The notes beneath the pieces were generated by a model that saw only the letters and a program-made list of their open reading frames with translations, searched no databases and was not told where the DNA came from. Shown one piece after another: positions 3,163 through 63,400 of a DNA stretch of 64,000 nucleotides. The stretch is taken from positions 558,001 to 622,000 of the forward strand of contig JAAVVG010000006.1 of the NCBI GenBank assembly GCA_012976225.1. The letters run 5' to 3'. A program made the position numbers and the translations under genes. This stretch comes from Golubevia sp. BC0850. Its lineage: Eukaryota > Basidiomycota > Exobasidiomycetes > Golubeviales > Golubeviaceae. Numbering within the stretch: the stretch's first letter is position 1; every line of letters starts with the position of its first letter.

Positions 3163-4974
3163 CTAAGCAACACAGTTCATGGTACCTAGCATGGTGACTC
3201 CAAAGTAGTTTCTGGAAAGAGAAGGAGAGGAGAAGTCGAGTTTGAGTAAGCTCACGGACAGGGTTTCCATCGTCGCCACCTCTGCCTCGCCTGTAGTTGT
3301 AATCACACAATCCACTAAGGATCTTGAGATTCTTAATCAGATACGAATACATTTTTTATTTTTTCTCTTTCGATGCTCACCCGAGATGATCTGTGGGTGC
3401 GATATCTTGTTGTTTGACAGAATCGCTACAGTTCTCGTTCTCGAGACCAGGACAGACGACTGCTGAGCTTGGATCGTTGGCCTTCTTCTGCCATATCTGC
3501 ATCGGAAAGAAGGGAATAAGGTTAACGAGAAGTATTGAAGAAGGTCAAGATGTACCTGAGGCTCACTTGCTCTCCTGGAGCCCAAAAGCCGGCATAGCCG
3601 ACGCTCGAGTTAGCAGCTCTCTCAGGTAAGTGAGGGATGATGTCGTTCCCATTTACTATTAATTGTAGTGAGTCCCGTGGCACGCTGTCATTGAGATGTG
3701 AAGGAGAATGGAAGAAGTTGCGAGTGAGATCGCCCGGTTCTCTGAATAGTTTCTGTGCATAAACAACTGACCTTTGAGCCCAGTTCAAGTTACCCTATAG
3801 ATCAGAAAGAGCCGTGAAATTTAGATCAGTGTTAGTAGATAAGAAAGTAGCAGCTTGTAAACCTCTCTTTCAGATGACTTACTGTTCTGGGCGCTCCGAA
3901 CACGATGGCGTCTACTTCAGTCGTTTCAGGCAAATGACACTTGAGATAAACTAAGTCAAACACGCTTACCGCACCACCCAAGGAGTGGCCAGTGATTAGA
4001 ACGCTAGCTGTCGGATTACGGTCGAGAAGAAGTTGCACTGCAAGAAGTGTGAGGCAAAGTGTGAGGGATTGGTAAAAGAGATGAGCGGCGAAGCGAAGGC
4101 GTTCAACAGTCGATACCGTTAGCTCACCAATGCTGGAGATTCCCTCGATTGTCATGTCAAACAGTCTCTGGTATCCGGTGTGAACCAGCGATAAAGGATC
4201 AAGCCTGCATTCTTTGATACGCTTCTCCGGAAACGAAGGCTTGATGTCAACGTTGGCTGAGGGAAGAAGGAGGGGAAGAGGATCGATTCGTAGACCATGA
4301 GAGGCATTGTAACCAAAGGAATGAGAAAGAGGGCTGAGCGATCATACAGCATCGGCCTCTTCTGCTGTTCATCTACTGACCATATACGGCTTGAATTTTG
4401 GTGATGTCGGTCCTGCAGTAGGAGAAAGCGACGGGTAGAAGGGTGAGGAGGGATGAGATCAAGCTGTGTTGACGAGTCGACACAGAGAGTCTCCACAGTG
4501 TCGTTATCTCTACTCCAGGAGAAGCTTTAATCTCTTTGTTCTAGATTTCCTTCGATCTAACCCACCCTTGATGAGCAACCACTATCTTGTCCTGCTCTGG
4601 GTGGTATGCCACAAAAGCGTACGGAGCGGAGTCCCCTGAATTATCAAACCAAGAAAGACTGAGTCAGTCCAGACCCGAATTCCACTGACATCCATGACAG
4701 CTTGACAGTGAAGACTCAGCCACTTCTTTCAATGCTTACCGCCATCTCCAAAAGCTCCATAAACTGTCGCTCCGTTAATTTGGTCCCCGAAGGTATGATT
4801 GCAGTAGACGGCATTGCTCCATATGGCAGCATCCGAATACTTTGAAGTATCTCCTGTAAGTGGAGTCGGCGCCTCTGTTGATTGTCTAGGAACAACATGC
4901 TGTGGGGCAGCATTGACGAAATGGAGAAGTGGAAGAAGAAGAGAAAGTCCTACGACTGATTTGAAGGACATCAT
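3163..4974 (-). CDS. Secreted class-3 (fungal) triacylglycerol lipase
   Basis: The product is a predicted secreted alpha/beta-hydrolase that cleaves acylglycerols. Eight exons on the minus strand (4740-4974, 4566-4635, 4381-4412, 4128-4256, 3883-4037, 3567-3794, 3381-3496, 3163-3211) sum to 337 aa. The first about 23 residues form a signal peptide (hydrophobic LSLLLPLLHFVNA) followed by a PRQ pro-region. The nucleophile elbow GHSLGG lies near residue 175. The acid Asp is in GNDIIPHLP and the catalytic His is in the C-terminal DHLGNYFG. The upstream oxyanion-region motif HQGT is rebuilt only by splicing. The upstream ATG was rejected because the signal peptide starts at 4974. The start of intron 3212-3380 (169 bp) and its length are the least certain junction. 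Confidence 0.9.
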
Positions 4975-14364: not shown

Positions 14365-17240
14365 TTAATCAGTTAGAGAACGGAACGATTCAGTCATTTG
14401 TTGATTTAGAGCGTCGTATTTCTTAGTGATAGCATCTTCTCCGTCCTTTGGAGATTCGAACTGAAGATGGGATAGAGGAAGAAAAACAGGTCAGTGTGAA
14501 TGTCTTTTGACTTTCGAAGGGAAGTCTGAGGACTCTCGGAAAACTCTCTCTCTCTCTCTGTGAGAATCTCACCTTCTGTTGTGTTAGACCGTAAATAATT
14601 TCCGAGCAATGTTCCTTAATCTTACTCCAAGTCATATCAGGGTTATTAGCAATAGCAGCTTGAGCTTTGTCATGGAAATCCACCATATTTCTCAACATAC
14701 CCGAAGTCTTGTAGAAAGGACAATATTGATCATATTCAGAGATACCATTTTGTTGAAGATAATCATTTTTAATGATATTAGCAACTTCCAAAGTGACTTT
14801 ATCAGGTTCACCCAAAGCAGATTTCCCAACCAATTGAACGATTTCAGCCAATTCAGAATCCTTTTGTAAAAGAGCTTTAGCAGTAGTTCTTAAACTAATG
14901 AAACCTTTATAATTAGTTTCATAATAAGGTTCCAAAGTGGAAACGTAATCAGAATAAGAAACGTCCCAATTAACAGAAGGGAAATGTTTTCTTTGAGCTA
15001 ATTTTTTATCTAAACCCCAGAATGCACCTACGATACCTAAAGTTGCTGAAGTGACTGGATCTGAGAAATCTCCTCCTGGTGGTGAAACTGCTCCAACAAT
15101 TGAAACTGATCCGTTACGATTTGGTGAACCTAAACAAGTAACTTTACCAGCTCTTTCATAGAAGGAAGCTAATTTTGCACCTAAATAAGCTGGATAACCA
15201 GAATCAGCTGGCATTTCAGCTAATCTACCAGAGATTTCTCTTAAAGCTTCTGCCCATCTTGAAGTTGAATCTGCCATCATGGCGACATTATAACCTTGAT
15301 CTCTGAAATATTCTGAAAGGGTGATACCGGTATAAATAGAAGCTTCTCTAGCAGCTACTGGCATGTTTGAAGTGTTAGCAACCAAAGTAGTACGTTTCAT
15401 AATCGGTTGTTCCTTTCCATCTCTCATCAAAGTCAATTCTGGGAATTCAGCTAAAACCTCTGCCATCTCGTTTCCTCTTTCTCCACAACCAACGTAAGTG
15501 ATAATGTCTGAATTTGAGAATTTGGATAAGGCTTGAGAAATGACTGTCTTTCCACATCCGAAAGCTCCTGGAATGGCAGTCGTACCTCCTTGAACACATG
15601 GGAAGAGAGAATCTAGAATTCTCTGTCCAGTTAGAAGTGGGGTGTCGGCGATGAGTTTCTCTGCAGTTGGACGAGGAGCTCTGACTGGCCATAATTGACA
15701 CATTGTGTGTTTGGTTGTCTTTCCTTCGAATTCAGTCTCTAGAATGACGTCATCGACAGTGTAAGCTCCCTTCTCGGCGATGTGTTTGATCGTTCCACGA
15801 GCTCTTGGTCCTAACATGATCTTATGTTCGTTGAGGAGCGAGTTTTCGTAGACGTCTCCGTAAATATCTCCTCCAGAAATGTGATCACCGACCTGAGAAG
15901 ATGCGGAATGTTTCATGGAAGGTAAGTTTTCAAAAGACTCACAAGACAACGAACAAACCCTGCTGAGAAACTCACGTGGTAGTTGACTGGGTTGAAGTCC
16001 CATTGGATCTCACGGTCCAAAGCTTGAGTACTGATTCCACGAGCTGAAGGGGATAAGAAGTTGAAAAATAATCAGAATCAGAACATCGAGTCAATTCTTG
16101 ATCTCAATCGATGAGTATCAGGGAGAACGCGAGTTCGACTTTGAGGAGGAAGGACAGGGGTTGAAGTAAAGTTCGCTGCTCGAGACTCACGAATATAGAT
16201 CCCTCCACTCTTTTTCTGAATACTTTCTAGAGGACGTTGAATACCTGAAATAGAGTGAGAGATGGGTTTCGAAGAAGGGAATTGCGAGTCAGTGCGAGAG
16301 TAGGAGTTGAAGCTGTGGAGGAGCTGATAAGGAACAAAGAGCTTGTCCCGAGAACTCTCTCGCTAGCCACCGAGGTTTGAAAGAGTGAACTACCCATATG
16401 ATTTTCACAGAGCTTCTTCAGATCGTATAATCGAACCGTTCGAACTGGAAGGACTACAACGTGCGCTCGAAGCAGTTTGAAAACAGGCATCACCACTTCC
16501 AGTAGCTTCATGATACCCTAGCTCTTCAAGTCTCTACCATCTCCAGATTACCTCAAATTCCCACCTCCTCGCCCTACTCCTCCTTCTAAGCACCCCCTCC
16601 CATCCTCAGCTCCCTTCCCCTGTCCTACCATCCTCAAACTCACCATCATAAATGTTACTCATCAAACCCGGACCCAATTCCACACTCAAAGGTTTCCCAC
16701 TGGACATGACTGGATCTCCAACTGAAACACCCGAGGTCTCTTCGTAGACTTGAATGGTGACCTTGTCTGCGTCGATTCTAATGATTTCACCGACTAGCTC
16801 GTCATGTCCTACACGAACTAATTCGTACATCTGAGAACCGATCATGTTCTCTGCTACCACTACTGGACCTGAAACTCCAAAGACTGTTCCGTATTCATGT
16901 TCGGAGTCGGCGTCACGGATCTGGGAAGGGACAGGAGAGGAGAGGAGAGGAGGGGAGAGAGGAAAGGGGGAGAGGTATACGAGAGGAAAGGATGTAGGAT
17001 TAGTTACATGACTATTGCCGCTTGAATTGATAAATTGATAGAATTGAATCTGTTCTACTTGAAGTTGATTTAGAGGAATGTTGATCTCTGGTTGAAGCCA
17101 ATCTTGACCTTGGCCTTGCCTTGGGTTGCTGTGATGGCTGAAGATCAGAGGCCCCTCCCCTCGCACTCTAGTCTGTTGTATTTGTGCTTTGATTTGCTCA
17201 CCTTTGGAAGATCTTTCTTTGCGTTCTGTAAAGTAGTCAT
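14365..17240 (-). CDS. VMA1: V-type proton ATPase catalytic subunit A
   Basis: This is the ATP-hydrolysing A subunit of the V1 sector that acidifies vacuoles and endosomes. Exons 17202-17240, 16644-16920, 16191-16244, 15976-16043, 14573-15892 and 14365-14460 sum to exactly 617 aa, the standard length. The N-terminus [13 protein letters not shown] joins to [20 protein letters not shown]. The P-loop is GAFGCGKT, followed by [16 protein letters not shown] and later [10 protein letters not shown]. The site that hosts the VMA intein in some yeasts (around the GCGER region) is uninterrupted. Introns of 281 and 399 bp near the 5' end are long for this window. A longer frame starting at 17415 was rejected because it fails to splice in phase. 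The promoter is shared with RPT1 (237 bp). Confidence 0.97.
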
Positions 17241-25302: not shown

Positions 25303-27250
25303 ATGATCGCCTTCCAACTATCTTTCATCGCTCTTGCGATGTCTTCTGCCTTGGCAACCCCAACCTTCTCCAGGGAGAATCTTGGCCACAATGGTGAGTT
25401 TTTGTGTGGCGGTCACTCTCACGCTAGGTCGCAGTTCGGTCGCTCAACCTCTCTTTTCCTTCTTCCTCTTTTCCAGTCAAGAACATCAATGACAACGACC
25501 TAGTCGATGCCAAGAACCTCAAACTCGATCTCGACGTTCTCAAGCGTGAGCAATCTGACTTCAGCCTGGACGTGAGTATCCCTTTCTCTCCTCCAACTCT
25601 CCCTGCGAACTTCTCGCTGACGCTCTTCCCCTTCCGCTCTTTTTACAGCTCATTCGTCGCGGTCACTCGTACTCCGGAGGCCACAACGTCTTCAACTACA
25701 ACGATGACGATCTCATCGACGCCAAAGATATCCTAGCTGCCATTGACAGTGAGTATTGAGAAGCTGATGAGAAGCTGTGGCAACCAACTCGGAAGCTCAT
25801 CCTTTCTTCGCGTTTCCCCCCTTCTAATCTTCAGTTCTCAAGAGAGCCAACTTCAACTACGCTCCAGAATCTTGGAAACGTGGAATTGAAGGAGCCGACA
25901 GACTTTTCCTTCGTGGATCTGACGACGATGACTGTGTCTGCAAGTCCAAGCCATTTACTCCTCCCTCCGATGGAGACTGCGATGCTCCAGACGAGCCAAC
26001 TCCTTCCAACACCTACGTTCCACCTCACTCTTTCCCAGCTAAACCAACCACTACCACCAAGAAGCACCACCACCAAACTACCGCAAAGACCTCCAAGTTC
26101 AGCACTAAGACCAAGTCTCACCCCGCTACCTCTGCTACCCCAACTCACAGCAAGTCTAAGACTCATCACCATCACTCTTCTGAATCTTCCGTCAAAACCA
26201 AGACTCGTACCCACACCAAGACTTCCTCTTCCACCGCCACCGCTTCTTCTACCCAGTCCCACTCTTCCACCAAGACCAAGACTCACTCTCACACTCCAAC
26301 CGCCACCTGTTCTCCTGGATTCACCTACGTCAACGGAGGTCACAACGGTTAGTATTTTGGCTCATTTCGCCTCTGCTTGCTCCTCCTTTTGGCTCAATTA
26401 CTTACCATCGCTTCTCCCCACTCCCCCTCTCTTTTCCAGTCGTCAACAAGAACGACAACGACCTACTCGACCTCAAGAATCTCTCCATCGATCTCAACAT
26501 CCTCTCTTTGGGCGGAAAGACATCTAAGTCCACTACTACCACCGACAAGGACTACAAGTGCGAATCTGACGAAGGCTGCTGCGTCAAGGTTTCTCACGGG
26601 CACGGTTCGGATTCATGCCAATCTGGTTACACCTTCGTCGATGAGGGACACAACGTCTACAACTACAACGACAACGACCTACTCGATCTCAAAGGACTAA
26701 CTATCGATTTGAACATTCTTTCTTCCGGAGAAAAGAAGACCACTACCAACAAGTCTTACAAGGCTCCAAAGGGAGGTTGTTGCGCAAAGACTTCTTGGGA
26801 CGATGCCACTTGCAAGTCTGGATACACCTACATTAACAAAGGGCACAACAGTGAGTGAAATCTTCTTTTTCTTCTCCCATTTTCGGTGTCTCTCGCTTTG
26901 GTCTCCTTCCTTCGCCAGTAGCTGACTCTTCACTTCTTCTCTCTGTTCCCCTTTTCTCAGTTGTCAACGAGAATGACAACGACCTTCTCGATCTCAAGGA
27001 CATCACTATCGACATCAACATCTTGTCTTCCACCCCAAAGAAGGAGACCAAGAAAGCTGACAAGGCCGACAAGTGCTCAGGAGACGCTGGATGCTGTGTC
27101 AAGATTGTCGATGGAGGTCACAACGTGAAGAACACCAACGACAACGATCTAGTTGATGCCAAAGGACTCAATCTCAGCCTCAACCTACTCAACGGAAACG
27201 GAAATGGAGGAGGGCTTCTCAGCGGACTTCTAGGAGGTCTAGGTCTTTAA
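25303..27250 (+). CDS. Secreted protein with six GHN/NDNDL repeats and a Ser/Thr/His/Lys-rich linker
   Basis: Exons 25303-25393, 25477-25571, 25649-25748, 25835-26347, 26440-26850 and 26961-27250 give 499 aa. A signal peptide covers residues 1-18. Six copies of a roughly 25-residue unit, GHNVxNxNDNDLxDxK plus a strand such as LxIDLNIL, lie at about residues 28-53, 73-97, 264-289, 336-361, 401-426 and 456-481. Copies 3-5 are preceded by a Cys-containing lead such as CxSGYTYVNxGHN. Gly-Cys-Cys motifs (GCCVK, GCCAK) recur between copies. Residues about 150-255 form a Thr/Ser/Lys/His-rich linker with HHHH runs. Dibasic KR/RR sites near residues 55, 66 and 99 suggest Kex2 processing. Copies 1, 3 and 5 have a phase-1 intron exactly after GHN; copies 2, 4 and 6 do not. 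The function is unknown; a cell-surface or matrix protein is inferred. Confidence 0.88.
26331..27197 (+). repeat. Tandem coding repeats, copies 3-6 of the GHN/NDNDL unit
   Basis: Four of the six units fall here, arranged as two pairs (3+4 and 5+6). Each pair begins with an intron-containing copy and ends with an intronless one, so the duplicated module was probably a pair. Confidence 0.8.
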
Positions 27251-27995: not shown

Positions 27996-30020
27996 TTAGT
28001 TCATGATAGGATAGCCAGCTTGGACGATTCCCTTCTCGCCGAGTTCGTGCGCCTTCTTCCCGAATTCTCTGAAGATGGATTCGAACTTGGCAACTTGAGG
28101 CTCGTCAGAAGAGTCGAAGGGTTGAACTCCCCTTCCTACCTGATACATCTGGGTCCCACTTGCCACACCAGTTATTGCGTAGTCACTCTCATCAAGGTCT
28201 GAATTGATAGCAGATGAGACTTCGCCAGAGAGAAGCTTCTTTGGAAGATCAAACTCCACAGTGATGGGTCTACCGAGACCAATTCCATGGGTAGATCCAG
28301 ATTGAATCGCAGAGACCATGGCGGGGGCGGTACGAAATCCACCGGTCACCCAAGTTTTGGCTTGAGGAGGTAGAGCTTTGACGACGACGTCCGAAAATTC
28401 GAGGAAGAAGGCTTCACGTTTCTTGGTTGATTCACGTTTGTGCAAAGCCATGCTGAAGAGGGTTGAGAGGGGTACGAGACAACGTGGGCGAGAGATAATC
28501 AGCGTCCAGCTAGGTTTCTTTCTGAGATGAACCAGATCAGATCAACTTCTTTAAAACAGGAATCTTTTGCCATTGTCGTTACCCACGATTCATAAGTTCC
28601 TCCAGAGAGCTCGATGAAAGTTACTCCTTCTTCGGCTAGCTTCGAAACCACGTCGCGACACTCTTCAGGTCGGAATCCTCCTTCTTGGAACTCCATGGAA
28701 TTGATCTTGATATCAAGAATGAATTCTTTGGTAGCAGAAGGAATCCTCTTCTTGATTTCGTCGATGATCTCGAAGATGATTCTAGAACGGTTCTCGAGAG
28801 AACCTCCGTATTGGTCGGTACGCTTGTTGGTGGTTCTGAGACATGGATGAGAAGAGCGGATGAGAACGTGGAGACAAGGAAAGGGAGGACAAGAGCCAAA
28901 GAAGAAGTTGGTAGAGAGGAAGAGTCCAGACTCACGGAGCCAAAAATTCTGAAGAGAGAAGAGAGAGAGACGAAAAGAGGCAGGAGGTCAGAGACATTCT
29001 TTCTTTCTTTCTTTCTTCTCGCCTTTTCAACGTCGAAAGAGACCTACGTGCGAGCAAATATCCGTGACTAGCATGGAGTTGTACTCCGTCAGCTCCAGTC
29101 TTGTAAGCGTATTCAGCTGCAGAAGCGAAAGAATTGACGAACTCCTTGATCCCCTCGATGGAGAGAGGCTCAGGCTTTCCATAGCACTGTCCCATCTTTC
29201 CGTCTAGTAATTGAACATCTGAAGCTGATACTGGGTTTGGGTTGATATGTTTACCAACTTGTCTTCCAGCGTGGGAGAGTTGTACGACATAGAGGGATCC
29301 GTGAGCCTGCGCCACTGATGCCATCATCTTGAAGGCTTCCAAGCGTTCCGGCTCATCTCCACCGAAAGTTGCGTTGCCAGCACCTTCGAGGTCAACTTGA
29401 TTCACCATGGTGTTCTGGAGATAGGGAGGAAAGGAAGAGAGCCGAGGAGAAGGATGCGAAGATGAAGGAGAAAAGACAGTCAGCTTGTGCCCATGCAAGC
29501 AAGACCACACTCAAGTTGCTACTGACACCAGAGAGAATGATTCCATATCTAAAGGTTGAAAGTAAAGACGAAAGAAAGAAAGGTAGTGATTCTCTTCTGT
29601 TCGAAGATCTGCTCGAGGGAACAAAACTCACCCTCCTCGACCCCATTGTTCGTAAACCTTGATGAGCTCCTCTGAAGGGACACCTCTTTTGCTTGGATCG
29701 TTCTGATCCCAGCTACTGATACGTTCAGTTAAGGCAGCTTTAAGGAAACAGTTCTGCGCAGAGACTCGAGGACTTAGCTCGATGGGCTGATTAAGAATTT
29801 TGAGCTCATCTGCCTCTAACTTTCTGCAGTCGAAACGTTTTGCACCTTGAGCTGAGGCGGAGACCATGGTTGATAAAAGATTTGGGTCGAGGAAGAGACT
29901 TGTTGGGAGGAAGAAAGGACTAGGTTCTCACCTTTTGTAGACAACCACTCCATCCTGATTTGGTAAGAAAGACACGATTTGCGGGCGAAGTACACGCTCG
30001 CTCCACTTGAAACGTGACAT
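27996..30020 (-). CDS. NADH:flavin oxidoreductase, old yellow enzyme family
   Basis: This is an FMN-dependent ene-reductase-like TIM-barrel protein. Exons 29932-30020, 29632-29823, 29527-29548, 29048-29414, 28936-28948, 28587-28835 and 27996-28452 give 462 aa. Family signatures are FLKAALTE, IILSGNTMV, QLSHAGRQ, GVQLHASHGYLLAQFLAP (with the paired active-site His), TNKRTDQYGGS and the C-terminal WVTGGFRT. Two internal micro-exons are required: 22 nt encoding YGIILSG and 13 nt encoding QFLAP. The first intron is ambiguous. An acceptor at 29899 would make a 33-bp intron and add 25 in-frame residues. The 105-bp choice given here is more usual in size. The exon 6 donor GTGGGT was chosen because it restores TYES-MALHKREST. 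Confidence 0.9.
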
Positions 30021-31519
30021 TAGAGAGGAGCCAAGAAGAGAAACGGACAACCCTTTTCCGCGCAGCACTTCTACGTCATCGGGCTGTAAGGGATCGTCGG
30101 TTTGACTTTTGAGATCTGAGGTTCCCGGAAGGAAGATTGCTCAGATCATTAACCATTCTTGTAACGGAACGAGTGACCGAGTTCCTAAGTGGGAAATGAT
30201 CGATGAATTTCGGGTCTCAAAATCTTGAAAGTTGAAGGCATGGCAAGTGGCAAACACTCCTCTGCGAATGCTGGGCGTTGAAAGTCAAAAGTGGGGAACT
30301 CGAATTCACTGTGTGGAGAACTGATCAAAAATGAATGAGAATCGAAAGTGAGTCATGGATGAAAGGGCAGGCTAGAAAGAAAGGAGCGAAGATATCGAAG
30401 AAGGCAAGAAGTTAGAAGGCCCCCTCAGCTGGAAAAGTCAAACCCACGTTTGCCAAGTGAATCAAAAGTGACTACTTGATTTACGGACTTCAGCTTGAGT
30501 GGGTACTAGTCTCCTTGTTGTAGTCGTCTTCCCTTTCTTTTTACTTTAAAAGCCCGACCCATTTTCATTGGCACGAAAGAGACTCACAAGTATGACTGCT
30601 CCTCCATATGTGATACCAGTGACACTATTGAGACCTCTACTCCTTCACGATCGCAGAGTAGAGGCGAGAATGAGAGTGGAAGTTCAAACGATCATGAAAG
30701 TCCAACTTCATTACGAAGACATTCTTCGTTGACTCACCTCTATGACTCTACTAGCTCTTCTCAAGTGCATTTCAAAGTCACTTCTTTCTACTCTAATTCT
30801 CAAAACTTCGACCTTCTCGAACTTTCTACGACTCTGATTCCATCCAAGCAGTCTTCATGATTGCCCTCTCCCTTGTTTCTTTAAAGACCACGATATCGAC
30901 TAGAGCTCTCTAGAAGGCTTCAGCCTTCTAAATTAAAATACTTATAAGTGATGATCGATGAGGTGTGAAAAGAGAGCAAAGGAAGAGAGAGTAAAGGTTT
31001 CATTGGCATCTGAACGTGACTGCGGAACGACGTGAGAGAGCGAGAATTTGCGTGAAAGATCTTTGAGAGGCCGAGAAGTAGGCAAAGCGAGGTTTGGGAA
31101 GAAGCTGAGTTGTGGAAGAGATTTGGGAGAAAAGGAGGAAGCGAGGAAGTAGAACTTGAAGTCTTTTAAAACCTTGCTTCATTCAAAGGTGAGCTGCACA
31201 CCTCCCAATTGCTAGTGCACTTCCAGCTCGTCTCTCCCCTCAAAAACTGTCAAGGCTTGAAGCGCTGTGAGGATCGGCCTGCTTGCTTTCTACTTCTTGA
31301 TGCTCCCCACTTCGCAGCTTAGACACGATTTTCTGCTAGGAATTCAGCATCTTTTCCTTGCGATTTATGAACCCAGGTTCCTTCTCCTTGGTGTCATTCC
31401 TTGTGGCCCGACCTTACTGAACGACTCTTGCTGAACATTGTGGACTGTCAAGTCCAGTCCAGTCCAGTCTAGGCTCTAGCTCCGCTTTCTCCATTCCCTC
31501 TGCTCTGCCTTTCCCCCGC
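30021..31519. other. Divergent promoter region, reductase and Mig1-type repressor
   Basis: A 1.5-kb interval between two divergent genes. A 46-codon ORF at 30592-30732 (MTAPPYVIPVTLLRPLLL) follows a TTTAAAAG near 30544 but has no other support. AGTCC is repeated three times near 31451-31467. No RNA gene was recognised. Confidence 0.4.
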
Positions 31520-32950
31520 ATGTTTCCTCCATCTTTCTTTCCATCAAGTCCTAATCTCTTACCAATTACAAGTCAGACTCAAAGCATGACACGATCTCAA
31601 TCAATTAGGAGTAAGCGCAATCCCATTACTCAGCAACCAGCAGCTACTGGAACTGGAACTGCATCTGGATCAACATGCAATAGTAACCAATCATCTTCTA
31701 CCACTGCCACCACAATTAATCCTGATTGGATGGATTGGTCAACATCAAATAATACTTCAATTTCAACTTCAACCACTTCAACAGATTCAACTTCACCAGC
31801 TGAAGATGATACTTCCAATCCTGATCCACCAAGACCTTATAAATGCAATTTATGCGAAAAGGCTTTCTTTCGATTAGAGCATCAAACCAGACACTTAAGA
31901 ACTCATACAGGAGAGAAACCATTCCTATGTCAATTCCCTGGATGTGAAAAAAAGTTTAGTAGATCAGATGAAGTTACCAGACATGCTAAGATTCATCCAG
32001 ATTTCAATCACCCCAAAGTAGTTAACAATCCCAAAACTTCAAAGTCGACTCCAACGACAAAAGGTAAACGAAAGAGTTCTATTAGTAAAGAAGTTTTAAC
32101 AGGGAGAAAGGGAAAGAAAGCTAGTCCAAAAGTTGAGGTCAAGGTTGAAGTCAAGGAAGAGGATGGGGATGAACCAGAAGAAGAGGAGGAAGAGGAAGAC
32201 TCGGCAACTGATTCTGATGATGACGATCACTTAGCAATGGATGCAGATGAAGTTGGAAAGGGAAAGGCAGTCGTTCAGGAAGAAGTTGATCCTTTGGAAG
32301 GTCTCTCGAGTGTTGGAATACCTCAAACTAAGAGAGAGGATGGGAATCATCAAGTCGTTGGGGTACACCACCACCACCACCTAGCTTCCTCTTCATGCTA
32401 CCAACTTCCTTCTTCAAACACTCCTCCCAACCCTTATCTATCAAATTCAAGATCTGGTTATCCAACTGAGTACGAATTACAAAGGTATAGAGCTCTCGAA
32501 GGTCAAGGTCAACATCAACAATTCAATCTCCAGTATCAAAATCACGGAAGAATCAACCCAAACCTACAACCACGCAATGTTTCTCAACCTCAACAACTTC
32601 AATATGAACATTACTACCAGGGTGGAAATAACTCAAATATGAATGGTCTTTCTTATCCTTCTATGACTTTCAACAATTGTCAATTTTATGCTCCTGCTCC
32701 TCCTCCACCTACTTTCAATCATGGTCCTTATCAAGGATATGATTCAAGTTTGAATAATTTGTATATGCTTCCTTCTACTTCTACTTCTTTACTAGAACAA
32801 TCCAACAGAATGATTCAGAATGGAGGTTTAGGAAATGAAGAGGTTAAATTCTCATCAAATGAAGAATTGTCAGGTGGGGAAAAAGAGATGAATCGCCTGG
32901 TTGATGAATTCATTTCGGAATTCGGCAATAAGGGAATTCCGGTGGAATGA
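31520..32950 (+). CDS. MIG1: C2H2 zinc-finger repressor of the Mig1/CreA carbon-catabolite type
   Basis: A single exon encodes 476 aa. Two adjacent C2H2 fingers at about residues 106-165 read [19 protein letters not shown] and [21 protein letters not shown]. They are preceded by PRP and joined by the TGEKP linker, the diagnostic arrangement of Mig1/CreA, which represses alternative-carbon genes when glucose is present. A Thr/Ser-rich N-terminus, a basic stretch, an acidic run ([17 protein letters not shown]) and a His run follow. The C-terminus ends in an amphipathic [13 protein letters not shown]. The start at 31520 is the first ATG; an internal ATG at 31585 is possible. Orthology to MIG1 is inferred from the fingers only. 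Confidence 0.88.
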
Positions 32951-60468: not shown

Positions 60469-63400
60469 ATGAATTCTAATCAGCAACAGCAAGCAACTTA
60501 TTCTGCAAATGGTTATCATCCTTCAACCCAAAAAGATTCTTACTACCCTTCAGATTCAAATTCATTTCAATTACGTCATAATCCTTCACCACCTTTAGCA
60601 GTTTCAGCTTCAGGAGGAGCTTCTCGAAAGAGAACGTCTCCACCTATTGCCTCTGCCTCAAATCCAGCCTCTTCCTCCTCTGTCTCTCCTTCAATAAATC
60701 ATCCAACGCTTTCAGATCATAAAGGAGCTGCTCTAAATACAGAGGAAGAGGGATCGGCAGAACCAGCTGGTCAGGCAAAGAAGAGGAAAAGGAACAGGTC
60801 AGTTACAAAGAGAGAGAGAAATTGGAAACAGCTTGGACAGATTCGAGGGAAACCAGACCTCTTTTTTGCTTATGCCAACCCATTCTCATCACATCAGGGT
60901 GGTTCTATCTTGTACAAATTGTAAAGCTCGAAAGATCAAGGTGAGTCTCTATCCTAAGTGCTTGGTTCAAGTTACCTTGATAACCGATCCAAAGCCTTCC
61001 TTCCTAATTTCCCTCTCTCTCTCTCTTTCAATCTCAGTGCTCCAGGAATGTGCCAGGATGTGATTCTTGTAAGAGGTGAGCTTGATTCATCGAGGTATCA
61101 AGGGAGTCACATGCGGAAAGAGAGGGCAGATAGCTAGGGAGGACAAGAGAGAATCAAAGAAGGAAGGACAAGGTTAGGTGAACAGCTGGGATTCCAAGAA
61201 GAAACTGGAAGATGGGAAAACTTTCCAAGAGATCTTCCAAGTGATTGAACTTCTTCCAAGATCTGAGCCAACGGAATTGGTTATTTAGATTTCAAGGGTG
61301 GAAATCTTCCTAGGACCTGTTTCCGTTGTTTTGAAGACCAGCCAAAACCGGAAACTCACATGGTTCGGAAGAGCAGGGCAGCGGTCGGGAAACGATTTTT
61401 CCCTTCGTTGTCTCCAAAGTCGGGAAATTTCTTTTCTTGACTTTTAACCTGGCCGAGAGATCTGCGAGAGTTTTTTCATCAACCGGACCGAGATCTTATC
61501 CTCCTCTTCTCGACCGCCTAGAAGCGCTCTTTTGATTGACTTGTCGATGCCTTTCTTTCGCCCACTTTTCTCCTTTGCATCCCCCCTACTTTCCAACTGC
61601 ATCGTAGACGAGGATTGGCACATACCTGCAGGTGAGTCACTTCTCTTGCCATTCCAAGATGGCAAGATGGAAGAGCTGGTTCCTTCTAAAAGCCGATTAA
61701 ATCATTTTCTCTTGTCCCCCACGCTGACTTCCACTCCCTCTTTTGATCACGCAATGTGTACTCTTTCTCTGATGCTGTAGATGGGGAGACGAAAGAGAGT
61801 GAGTGAAGCTTCGAGCTGGCTCGTGTCGACGCAGCGTCAAATCTTTTCGCTGACTTGCCTTGTCTCTTCCCTTCTATCTCGACTCCGTCTCGCTTCTTTC
61901 GATCTACCAGCCATGCCTTCCTCGGGAACGTCGAAGAAGCCGAAGCCTTGAAGAATCGAATCACTGAACTCGAATCTTTGGTCCAGAGTCTTCAAAACCG
62001 AAGCGGGAATGGAAACGGAAACAGAAACGAGAATGGTGGTCCAAGACGAACCGAGCAACCATCAGTCAATCGAACCCTCCAGAGTGAAGATGAATCCAAC
62101 GACGAGTCTGACACTGAGGAGGCAGCCTCAGTCTTGGAACAGCTAGCAACTACTGGGCTTCCTAGCCTGAATTCGGAGAGAAAGGCTGCCCTCCTTCTAC
62201 CTAGCGTAAGAGATCTTCCAAACGATAGAAACTACTCAGCTCCGAGGAATGGTACAGCAACGAACGGAAACGGGAAAGATAAAGAATTTCTCACTTTGCC
62301 TTCTCTTCCTAGTTTAAGCAATTTCTCAGCCATGTCTGCTCCTCCTTCAAACCCTGGTTCCCAAGATAGTCAAGTAGAGAATTGTTTGATGCTACTTCCG
62401 AAGATGAAGGATCTACTCGAGGTCTGTAGGTGGTATTTGGAAGAGGTGGATCCCATCTTGGCTTGCCTCAATCGGTGAGTACTTCTGTCTTGTACTGTAG
62501 ATTTTGGATCTTTTCCATCCTGACCTTCCTTTCGTCTCTTCTTCTCCTTTTAGTGTCATCTTCAGGCAGCAACTATCCGAATTCGAGATGGCTTTCAACT
62601 CTAGGATGAATCAGACCAGCTCTCCTTTCAGCGTGGATCTCAGCTTCGTAGCTCTTCTCTTTGCAGTTCTTAGTGCCTCTTCAGAGTACAAGACTTCTAG
62701 AGAATTAGTTCAATGCAATCTAATCCCCAACGAAGAACGGATGGACGAATATTTGGAACGATTCTATTCGATTTCAATTACCATGCTTGGCCTCAGCGAT
62801 TTTGGTGAGCGACCAACTATCAACGGTCTTCAAGCTGTTGCGATGTTGAGCCACTACGCTTTCGCCAGGAGAAAGCAGAAGAGCTATGGTTCGCTCTTAG
62901 TGATGAGCTTAAGGTTAGCAGAGACTCTGGGTCTTCATCGTTTAGGAACAGCGGAAGACGACGCTCGACGATGGGCGGGAGGCTCAAACGATGACAACAG
63001 CTCCAACTCTGGCTCTGCTCTCAATCCATCTTTTACTAAAGTCAAGGATCGAAGATTGAGCTCAACTTCTAAGGACTCAGGCTCTTCTTCTTCTCTTACT
63101 CATTCCTCTGGAGGCAAACCTCATCCTACTTCAAAAACGGTCGGTCAAGGGAAGGAAAAGGAACACCACTCTCTACAAGGCATGTTCCTACCTCCAAATG
63201 TTTTCGGAAGCTACGAAGCTTCCTACTGTGATGGTAGTCACCTTCATAGAGAAACAGCACGAGGAATTTGGCTAGCTTTATGCTGTCTAGAGACTTTTAC
63301 CTCAGCGTCAGTATTAACACCACTGTGAAAGACCAAAAGAGAACACATAGACTCATCTCCCTTTCCATCCCCCTCTCCCAATTCCATCCTCTTCTTTTCT

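What the first reader, a model, noticed from the sequence alone, without database searches (positions are those of the whole stretch)
25303..27250. Secreted protein made of a six-copy GHN...NDNDLxDxK repeat
Six copies of a roughly 25-residue unit (core GHNVxNxNDNDLxDxK, then an alternating hydrophobic strand like IDLNIL) form a secreted protein with Cys-Cys pairs and a His/Thr/Lys-rich linker. I do not recognise this repeat from any named family. It has the look of a self-assembling surface or matrix protein.
Basis: partly seen in the sequence, partly recalled or inferred. Interest (0 to 1): 0.75.

Follow-up and report, generated by a model that had tools for sequence, protein, structure and literature searches.

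The report
Fungal secreted six-copy repeat protein
An intron-rich fungal gene appears to make a secreted protein that carries the same short Asn/Asp-rich module six times, two copies of it bracketed by protease cutting sites, and it most likely helps build the fungal cell surface; no relative was found in the collections searched, but fungal proteomes were not among them.

Summary
The gene (25303-27250, +) has six exons and encodes 499 residues with a signal-peptide-like start. Six copies of a 25-residue module (GHN[VI]xNxND[ND]DLxD[AL]K plus an alternating hydrophobic strand) score 77-111 against each other; copy 1 against 300 shuffles reaches 47. Copies differ mainly at synonymous sites. Codon bias exceeds that of 14 other long window ORFs, hinting at high expression. 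The copies are dispersed (spacings 45-191), not tandem. No accepted match in Pfam, NCBIfam, PDB, viral, prokaryote or plasmid sequence; fungal genomes were not searchable. Structure predictions were low-confidence. Best reading: a partly Kex2-processed cell-surface or matrix protein working like Ustilago Rep1/Hum3; membership is unmet or untestable. New variant of a known kind, moderate interest.

The parts
25303..27250 (+). Whole coding region, 6 exons (25303-25393, 25477-25571, 25649-25748, 25835-26347, 26440-26850, 26961-27250), 499 aa
   Evidence: Splice model and single-intron retention test
25303..25356 (+). Signal-peptide-like N-terminus (residues 1-18, probable cut after ALA)
   Evidence: By eye from the translation; coordinates; no predictor run
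25384..25541 (+). Copy 1 (residues 28-52), split by intron 1 between GHN and V
25542..25547 (+). Kex2-type site KR (53-54)
25655..25660 (+). Kex2-type site RR (65-66)
25679..25839 (+). Copy 2 (residues 73-97); intron 3 falls near its end
25840..25845 (+). Kex2-type site KR (98-99)
25876..25881 (+). Kex2-type site KR (110-111)
25933..26313 (+). Linker about residues 129-255, T 24%, S 19%, K 13%, H 11%, with His runs
   Evidence: Composition; coordinates
26338..26504 (+). Copy 3 (264-288), split by intron 4 between GHN and V
26559..26645 (+). Cys segment between copies 3 and 4 (residues 307-335)
26646..26720 (+). Copy 4 (336-360), no intron
26769..26840 (+). Cys segment between copies 4 and 5 (residues 377-400)
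26841..27025 (+). Copy 5 (401-425), split by intron 5 between GHN and I
27074..27115 (+). Cys segment between copies 5 and 6 (residues 442-455)
27116..27190 (+). Copy 6 (456-480), no intron
27191..27247 (+). Gly/Leu/Asn-rich tail (481-499)

Best explanation
A secreted, abundant structural component of the fungal surface or extracellular matrix. The precursor enters the secretory pathway. A Kex2-like protease cuts at four KR/RR sites and frees two short module peptides (36 and 33 residues before trimming) plus two 12-residue spacers. The remaining 388-residue body starts with a probably O-glycosylated Ser/Thr/Lys/His-rich stalk and carries four more copies of the same module alternating with Cys-Cys segments that probably form disulfides. 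The module (an Asn/Asp-rich turn followed by a strand with one greasy and one polar face) would pair edge to edge with other copies, so that peptides and body co-assemble. Shown: open spliced frame, repeats, dibasic sites, Cys, codon bias. Inferred: splicing, secretion, cleavage, expression level, localisation. Assembly is a hypothesis.
For: Repeat well above shuffles. Conserving pattern between copies: dN 0.16-0.46 against dS 0.73-2.62, dN below dS in 14 of 14 pairs for which dS could be computed; in the 15th (copies 2-5) it could not. GC3 0.60, C/(C+T) 0.65, AAG share 0.82, each above all 14 other ORFs compared (0.26-0.53, 0.19-0.56, 0.34-0.70). Four of four KR/RR sites lie in residues 53-111; 8 of 9 Arg lie in residues 24-122 and residues 123-499 hold 42 Lys but 1 Arg (noticed after the fact, hypergeometric 3e-5). 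The strand is amphipathic at beta period. Layout resembles Rep1 and Hum3: amphipathic imperfect repeats of 34-55 and 31-36 residues, all or mostly separated by Kex2 sites, Rep1 also giving one 228-residue piece (PMC4617103, passages seen).
Against: Only two of six copies are released by KR/RR sites; four KK pairs (171, 365, 430, 434) lie in the body, and some definitions count KK as a Kex2 site, so the body need not stay whole. No typical GPI signal is seen by eye, and no wall-binding domain was found. Structure prediction did not support an ordered module: mean pLDDT 44.5 with 3 rows and 56.9 with 6 rows, no secondary structure in the second. No transcript, localisation or relatives. The amphipathic signal holds only for the 8-residue strand; for the 14- and 12-residue segments 899-1112 and 3733-4425 of 5000 permutations reach the value at 170-180 degrees. 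Codon bias may partly reflect composition: the gene's introns have GC 0.46-0.53 against 0.45 for the window.
Confidence: 0.42

Rival explanations
1. A secreted effector or shield: the repeats bind a host or competitor molecule at the hyphal surface, as the non-processed repetitive protein Rsp3 of Ustilago maydis does.
For: Secreted, repetitive, Cys-containing, no known domain; Rsp3 is likewise without predicted domains or GPI anchor and decorates hyphae (PMC5923269, abstract and passages).
Against: The copies show a conserving rather than diversifying pattern; nothing is known of a host; Rsp3 repeats were not compared by sequence.
Confidence: 0.2
2. A cation-binding secreted protein: the NxND[ND]DLxD loop holds Ca2+ somewhat like DxDxDG-type loops, and the His runs and Cys-Cys pairs bind transition metals.
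For: Of the loop residues, N7, N9, D10, D12 and D15 are the same in 6 of 6 copies and N11 in 5 of 6; His is 11% of the linker. The comparison with DxDxDG loops is recalled, not from a call.
Against: No EF-hand, dockerin, TSP3 or RTX model appeared at E up to 10, though HMMER's filters drop most matches above about 0.1; the Gly of the DxDxDG loop and the last acid of the EF-hand loop (both recalled) are absent.
Confidence: 0.17
3. A precursor of signalling peptides of the KEX2-processed repeat protein (KEP) kind; the released copies act as diffusible signals and the C-terminal part is a carrier.
For: KR/RR cuts give a clean repeat-spacer-repeat-spacer pattern of 36, 12, 33 and 12 residues.
Against: Only two repeat copies lie in short fragments between KR/RR sites, below the three needed in PMC6339444; the two copies are 54% identical, whereas KEP repeats are described as identical or nearly identical (abstract); four copies stay in the body.
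Confidence: 0.12

Closest known systems
Rep1 (repellent) of Ustilago maydis
   Same: Secreted precursor, amphipathic imperfect repeats of about 35 residues freed by Kex2-type sites, plus one long piece
   Different: Rep1 has twelve repeats and gives ten short peptides; here two copies are freed and four stay in a Cys-containing body. Rep1 sequence was not at hand, so kinship is untested
Hum3 of Ustilago maydis
   Same: Amphipathic imperfect repeats of 31-36 residues, fourteen of seventeen separated by putative Kex2 motifs, followed by a different C-terminal domain
   Different: Hum3 ends in a hydrophobin domain; here no hydrophobin model matches and the Cys order does not fit
KEX2-processed repeat proteins (KEPs)
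   Same: Signal peptide (by eye), repeats, KR/RR sites
   Different: Two rather than three or more repeat fragments from KR/RR cuts; the module also occurs uncleaved
Rsp3 of Ustilago maydis
   Same: Secreted repetitive protein with a Cys-rich region and no predicted domain
   Different: Different layout (Gln/Pro-rich and Cys-rich parts before a long repeat array); no sequence comparison made

Membership tests
KEP, definition of PMC6339444 | At least three similar fragments after cutting at KR/RR | tested here: not met
   Five fragments, two short ones with the module; the C-terminal piece holds four more copies uncut. The paper's own script was not run
KEP, definition of PMC7329392 | At least 3 tandem repeats of 8 or more residues between KR, KK, RK or RR sites, repeats not over 100 residues | tested here: inconclusive
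   With KK counted, 5 of 9 fragments hold the module (1,1,2,1,1 copies), but one is 194 residues and the paper's repeat finder was not rerun
Repellents (Rep1/Hum3) | Amphipathic repeats of about 31-55 residues separated by Kex2 sites | tested here: inconclusive
   Kex2-type sites flank copies 1-2 only; amphipathicity shown for the 8-residue strand only
[quoted passage not shown]
   Needs peptide chemistry and microscopy
Repellents (Rep1/Hum3) | Sequence homology to Rep1 or Hum3 repeats | not tested
   Sequences not at hand; two primary Rep1 papers not held
Hydrophobin | Eight-Cys order C-CC-C-C-CC-C (recalled) and Pfam match | tested here: not met
   Cys at 129,131,144,254,307,313,314,326,380,381,391,442,448,449. 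The nearest run, C326-CC-C391-C442-CC, has seven of the eight but no last Cys and wide gaps (53 and 50 residues); no hydrophobin model at E up to 10
DxDxDG-type Ca2+ loops (EF-hand, dockerin, TSP3, RTX) | Family profile match | tested here: not met
   None listed at E up to 10

The most novel reading that the evidence does not exclude
A new, so far undescribed extracellular beta module (GHN-NDND module) that one gene delivers in two physical states: as free Kex2-cut peptides and as a multi-copy, disulfide-braced body, so that the free peptides nucleate or cap assembly of the body and set matrix growth by their ratio, fixed at 2:4 in the gene.
Probability: 0.1. Interest if true: 0.65.

Novelty: new variant of a known kind. 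Interest (0 to 1): 0.36.

Why it matters
If right, it adds a surface-protein type beside hydrophobins and repellents, with a repeat for which Pfam-A and NCBIfam gave no model, and a layout mixing cleaved and retained copies of one module. It also offers a small case of intragenic duplication in which introns sit at one position of the module in three of six copies. If it proves a lineage-specific wall protein of familiar type, it is ordinary fungal biology.

Tried and rejected
Known domain: Pfam-A on the spliced protein gives three families below cut-off, mainly on the linker (best SOG2 E 0.039, 13.8 bits against 26.9); on the C-terminal part ChlamPMP_M E 0.0074, 16.8 bits against 25, and LacZ_4 E 1; on the N-terminal part none. 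These are taken as chance. NCBIfam: 11 families, all on the linker, none near its cut-off. PDB: fibrinogen alpha E 2.1 and 2.5 with the repeat profile, CSL3 E 6.4 with the C-terminal part, taken as chance.

Relatives elsewhere: viral contigs 75 and 135 pattern stretches, none confirmed by tblastn; prokaryote genomes 110 stretches, none confirmed; plasmids none. One search used a 29-residue query, for which E up to 1e-3 is hard to reach; searches used the C-terminal part. The phage collection was not searched. The window's genome is not held. No collection of fungal genomes or proteins was on hand, so absence of relatives in fungi is not claimed.

Structure: two low-confidence models; no fold search was made because such models give meaningless matches.

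Literature: six motif strings found in no paper; a looser search gave 5 papers, judged unrelated from the listing only. The papers used came from searches; searches gave nothing that I used beyond these. A bacterial promoter and terminator scan of the upstream region found nothing and is not suited to fungi. Rfam and tRNA scans of the window were empty.

Full report
What is there. Read with five GT-AG introns (77-110 nt) the frame is open from ATG 25303 to TAA 27250 and gives 499 residues; retaining intron 1, 2, 3, 4 or 5 alone gives a stop at residue 67, 117, 99, 268 or 406. The first 18 residues look like a signal peptide (by eye). Six copies of the module follow, starting at residues 28, 73, 264, 336, 401 and 456. 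Eleven of 29 aligned columns are the same in 6 of 6.

Is it more than chance. The 15 pairwise scores between copies are 77-111; copy 1 against 300 shuffled versions of the chain reaches at most 47. A HMM of the copies finds six places in the six-frame window, all in this gene, and the next is at E 1.1; the HMM was built from those copies, so their own scores are by construction. At the DNA level no tandem array of the module's length is seen at score 30 or more, and identical residues are often coded by different codons. dN is below dS in 14 of 14 computable pairs; for copies 2-5 dS could not be computed. The units compared are 26 codons long, so single values are rough. The copies are therefore likely old and kept for their protein sequence (inference).

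Layout. The copies are dispersed, 45-191 residues apart from start to start. Copies 1 and 2 are followed by KR, and two 12-residue spacers end in RR and KR: fragments of 36, 12, 33 and 12 residues and a body of residues 112-499. All four KR/RR sites lie in residues 53-111; four KK pairs lie later. Of 9 Arg, 8 lie between 24 and 122; residues 123-499 have 42 Lys and 1 Arg. This was noticed after the fact, so it is not a planned test. The body has a linker of about 127 residues rich in Thr, Ser, Lys and His, then copies 3-6 separated by short segments with Cys-Cys pairs and, before copies 3, 4 and 5, the motif CxxG[YF]T[YF][VI], and a Gly/Leu/Asn-rich tail.

Introns. Introns 1, 4 and 5 split the codon after GHN, in phase 1, in copies 1, 3 and 5; copies 4 and 6 have none, and copy 2 has an intron at another place near its end. 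Such a pattern fits duplication of a two-copy unit carrying one intron. Three introns can fall on six copies in 20 ways, and two of these alternate strictly, so this is not strong evidence.

Expression hint. GC3 is 0.60, C among C/T-ending codons 0.65, AAG among Lys codons 0.82. Fourteen other ORFs of 250 aa or more give 0.26-0.53, 0.19-0.56 and 0.34-0.70 (for 13, for the fourteenth). They are 14 of the 15 ORFs listed; the one left out, 25760-26527, is an out-of-frame ORF inside this gene (0.42, 0.45, 0.50). The ORFs are mechanical and include non-coding ends, and the V-ATPase A subunit ORF, an expected well-expressed gene, is among the low ones (GC3 0.30), so high expression is an inference only and the set of preferred codons was not established.

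What kind of organism. Probably a fungus: a Fungal_trans domain lies in the ORF at 62501-63325, just above its cut-off (23.5 against 23 bits). The V-ATPase A subunit piece scores higher with 6vq6 (720 bits; an animal entry, as recalled) than with the yeast protein 5bw9 (684 bits), which with the many introns suits a basidiomycete but does not prove it. Nearest neighbours: three minus-strand ORFs upstream without a Pfam match at E 0.01, and an NADH:flavin oxidoreductase piece on the minus strand downstream.

Relatives. No accepted family match in Pfam-A or NCBIfam, no solved structure by sequence, and no confirmed place in viral, prokaryote or plasmid sequence. Six motif strings occur in no paper of the library. 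Apart from Pfam and the PDB, none of this speaks about fungi, which were not searchable.

How it most likely works. See the best explanation. The layout, amphipathic strand and codon bias point to a bulk surface or matrix component of the kind of Rep1 and Hum3, described in the review PMC4617103 (passages); PMC6339444 states that the Rep1 peptides control hyphal wall properties (abstract, section 24 and passages seen). By the definition in that paper the protein is not a KEP; by that of PMC7329392 (abstract and section 13) it is undecided. PMC9769878 was seen in its search listing and passages and PMC5923269 in abstract and passages.

Against the reading. The structure predictions gave no ordered module (3 and 6 rows, all from this gene, so the method had little to work with). 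The amphipathic signal is limited to the 8-residue strand and is the best of nine uncorrected tests by segment and angle. The effector and cation-binding rivals remain open.

Noticed in passing
25394-25476, 26348-26439, 26851-26960: Introns 1, 4 and 5 split the same codon of the module in phase 1 in copies 1, 3 and 5; exons 4 and 5 are symmetric 1-1 exons.
   Followed up: partly
   Followed up: partly
28502-28987: Piece of an NADH:flavin oxidoreductase (PF00724) on the minus strand downstream, convergent with the gene.
   Followed up: no
14426-16009: V-ATPase catalytic subunit A piece (minus strand) with mostly A/T-ending codons (GC3 0.30), in contrast to the repeat gene.
   Followed up: no
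31421-32947: C2H2 zinc-finger protein ORF on the plus strand.
   Followed up: no
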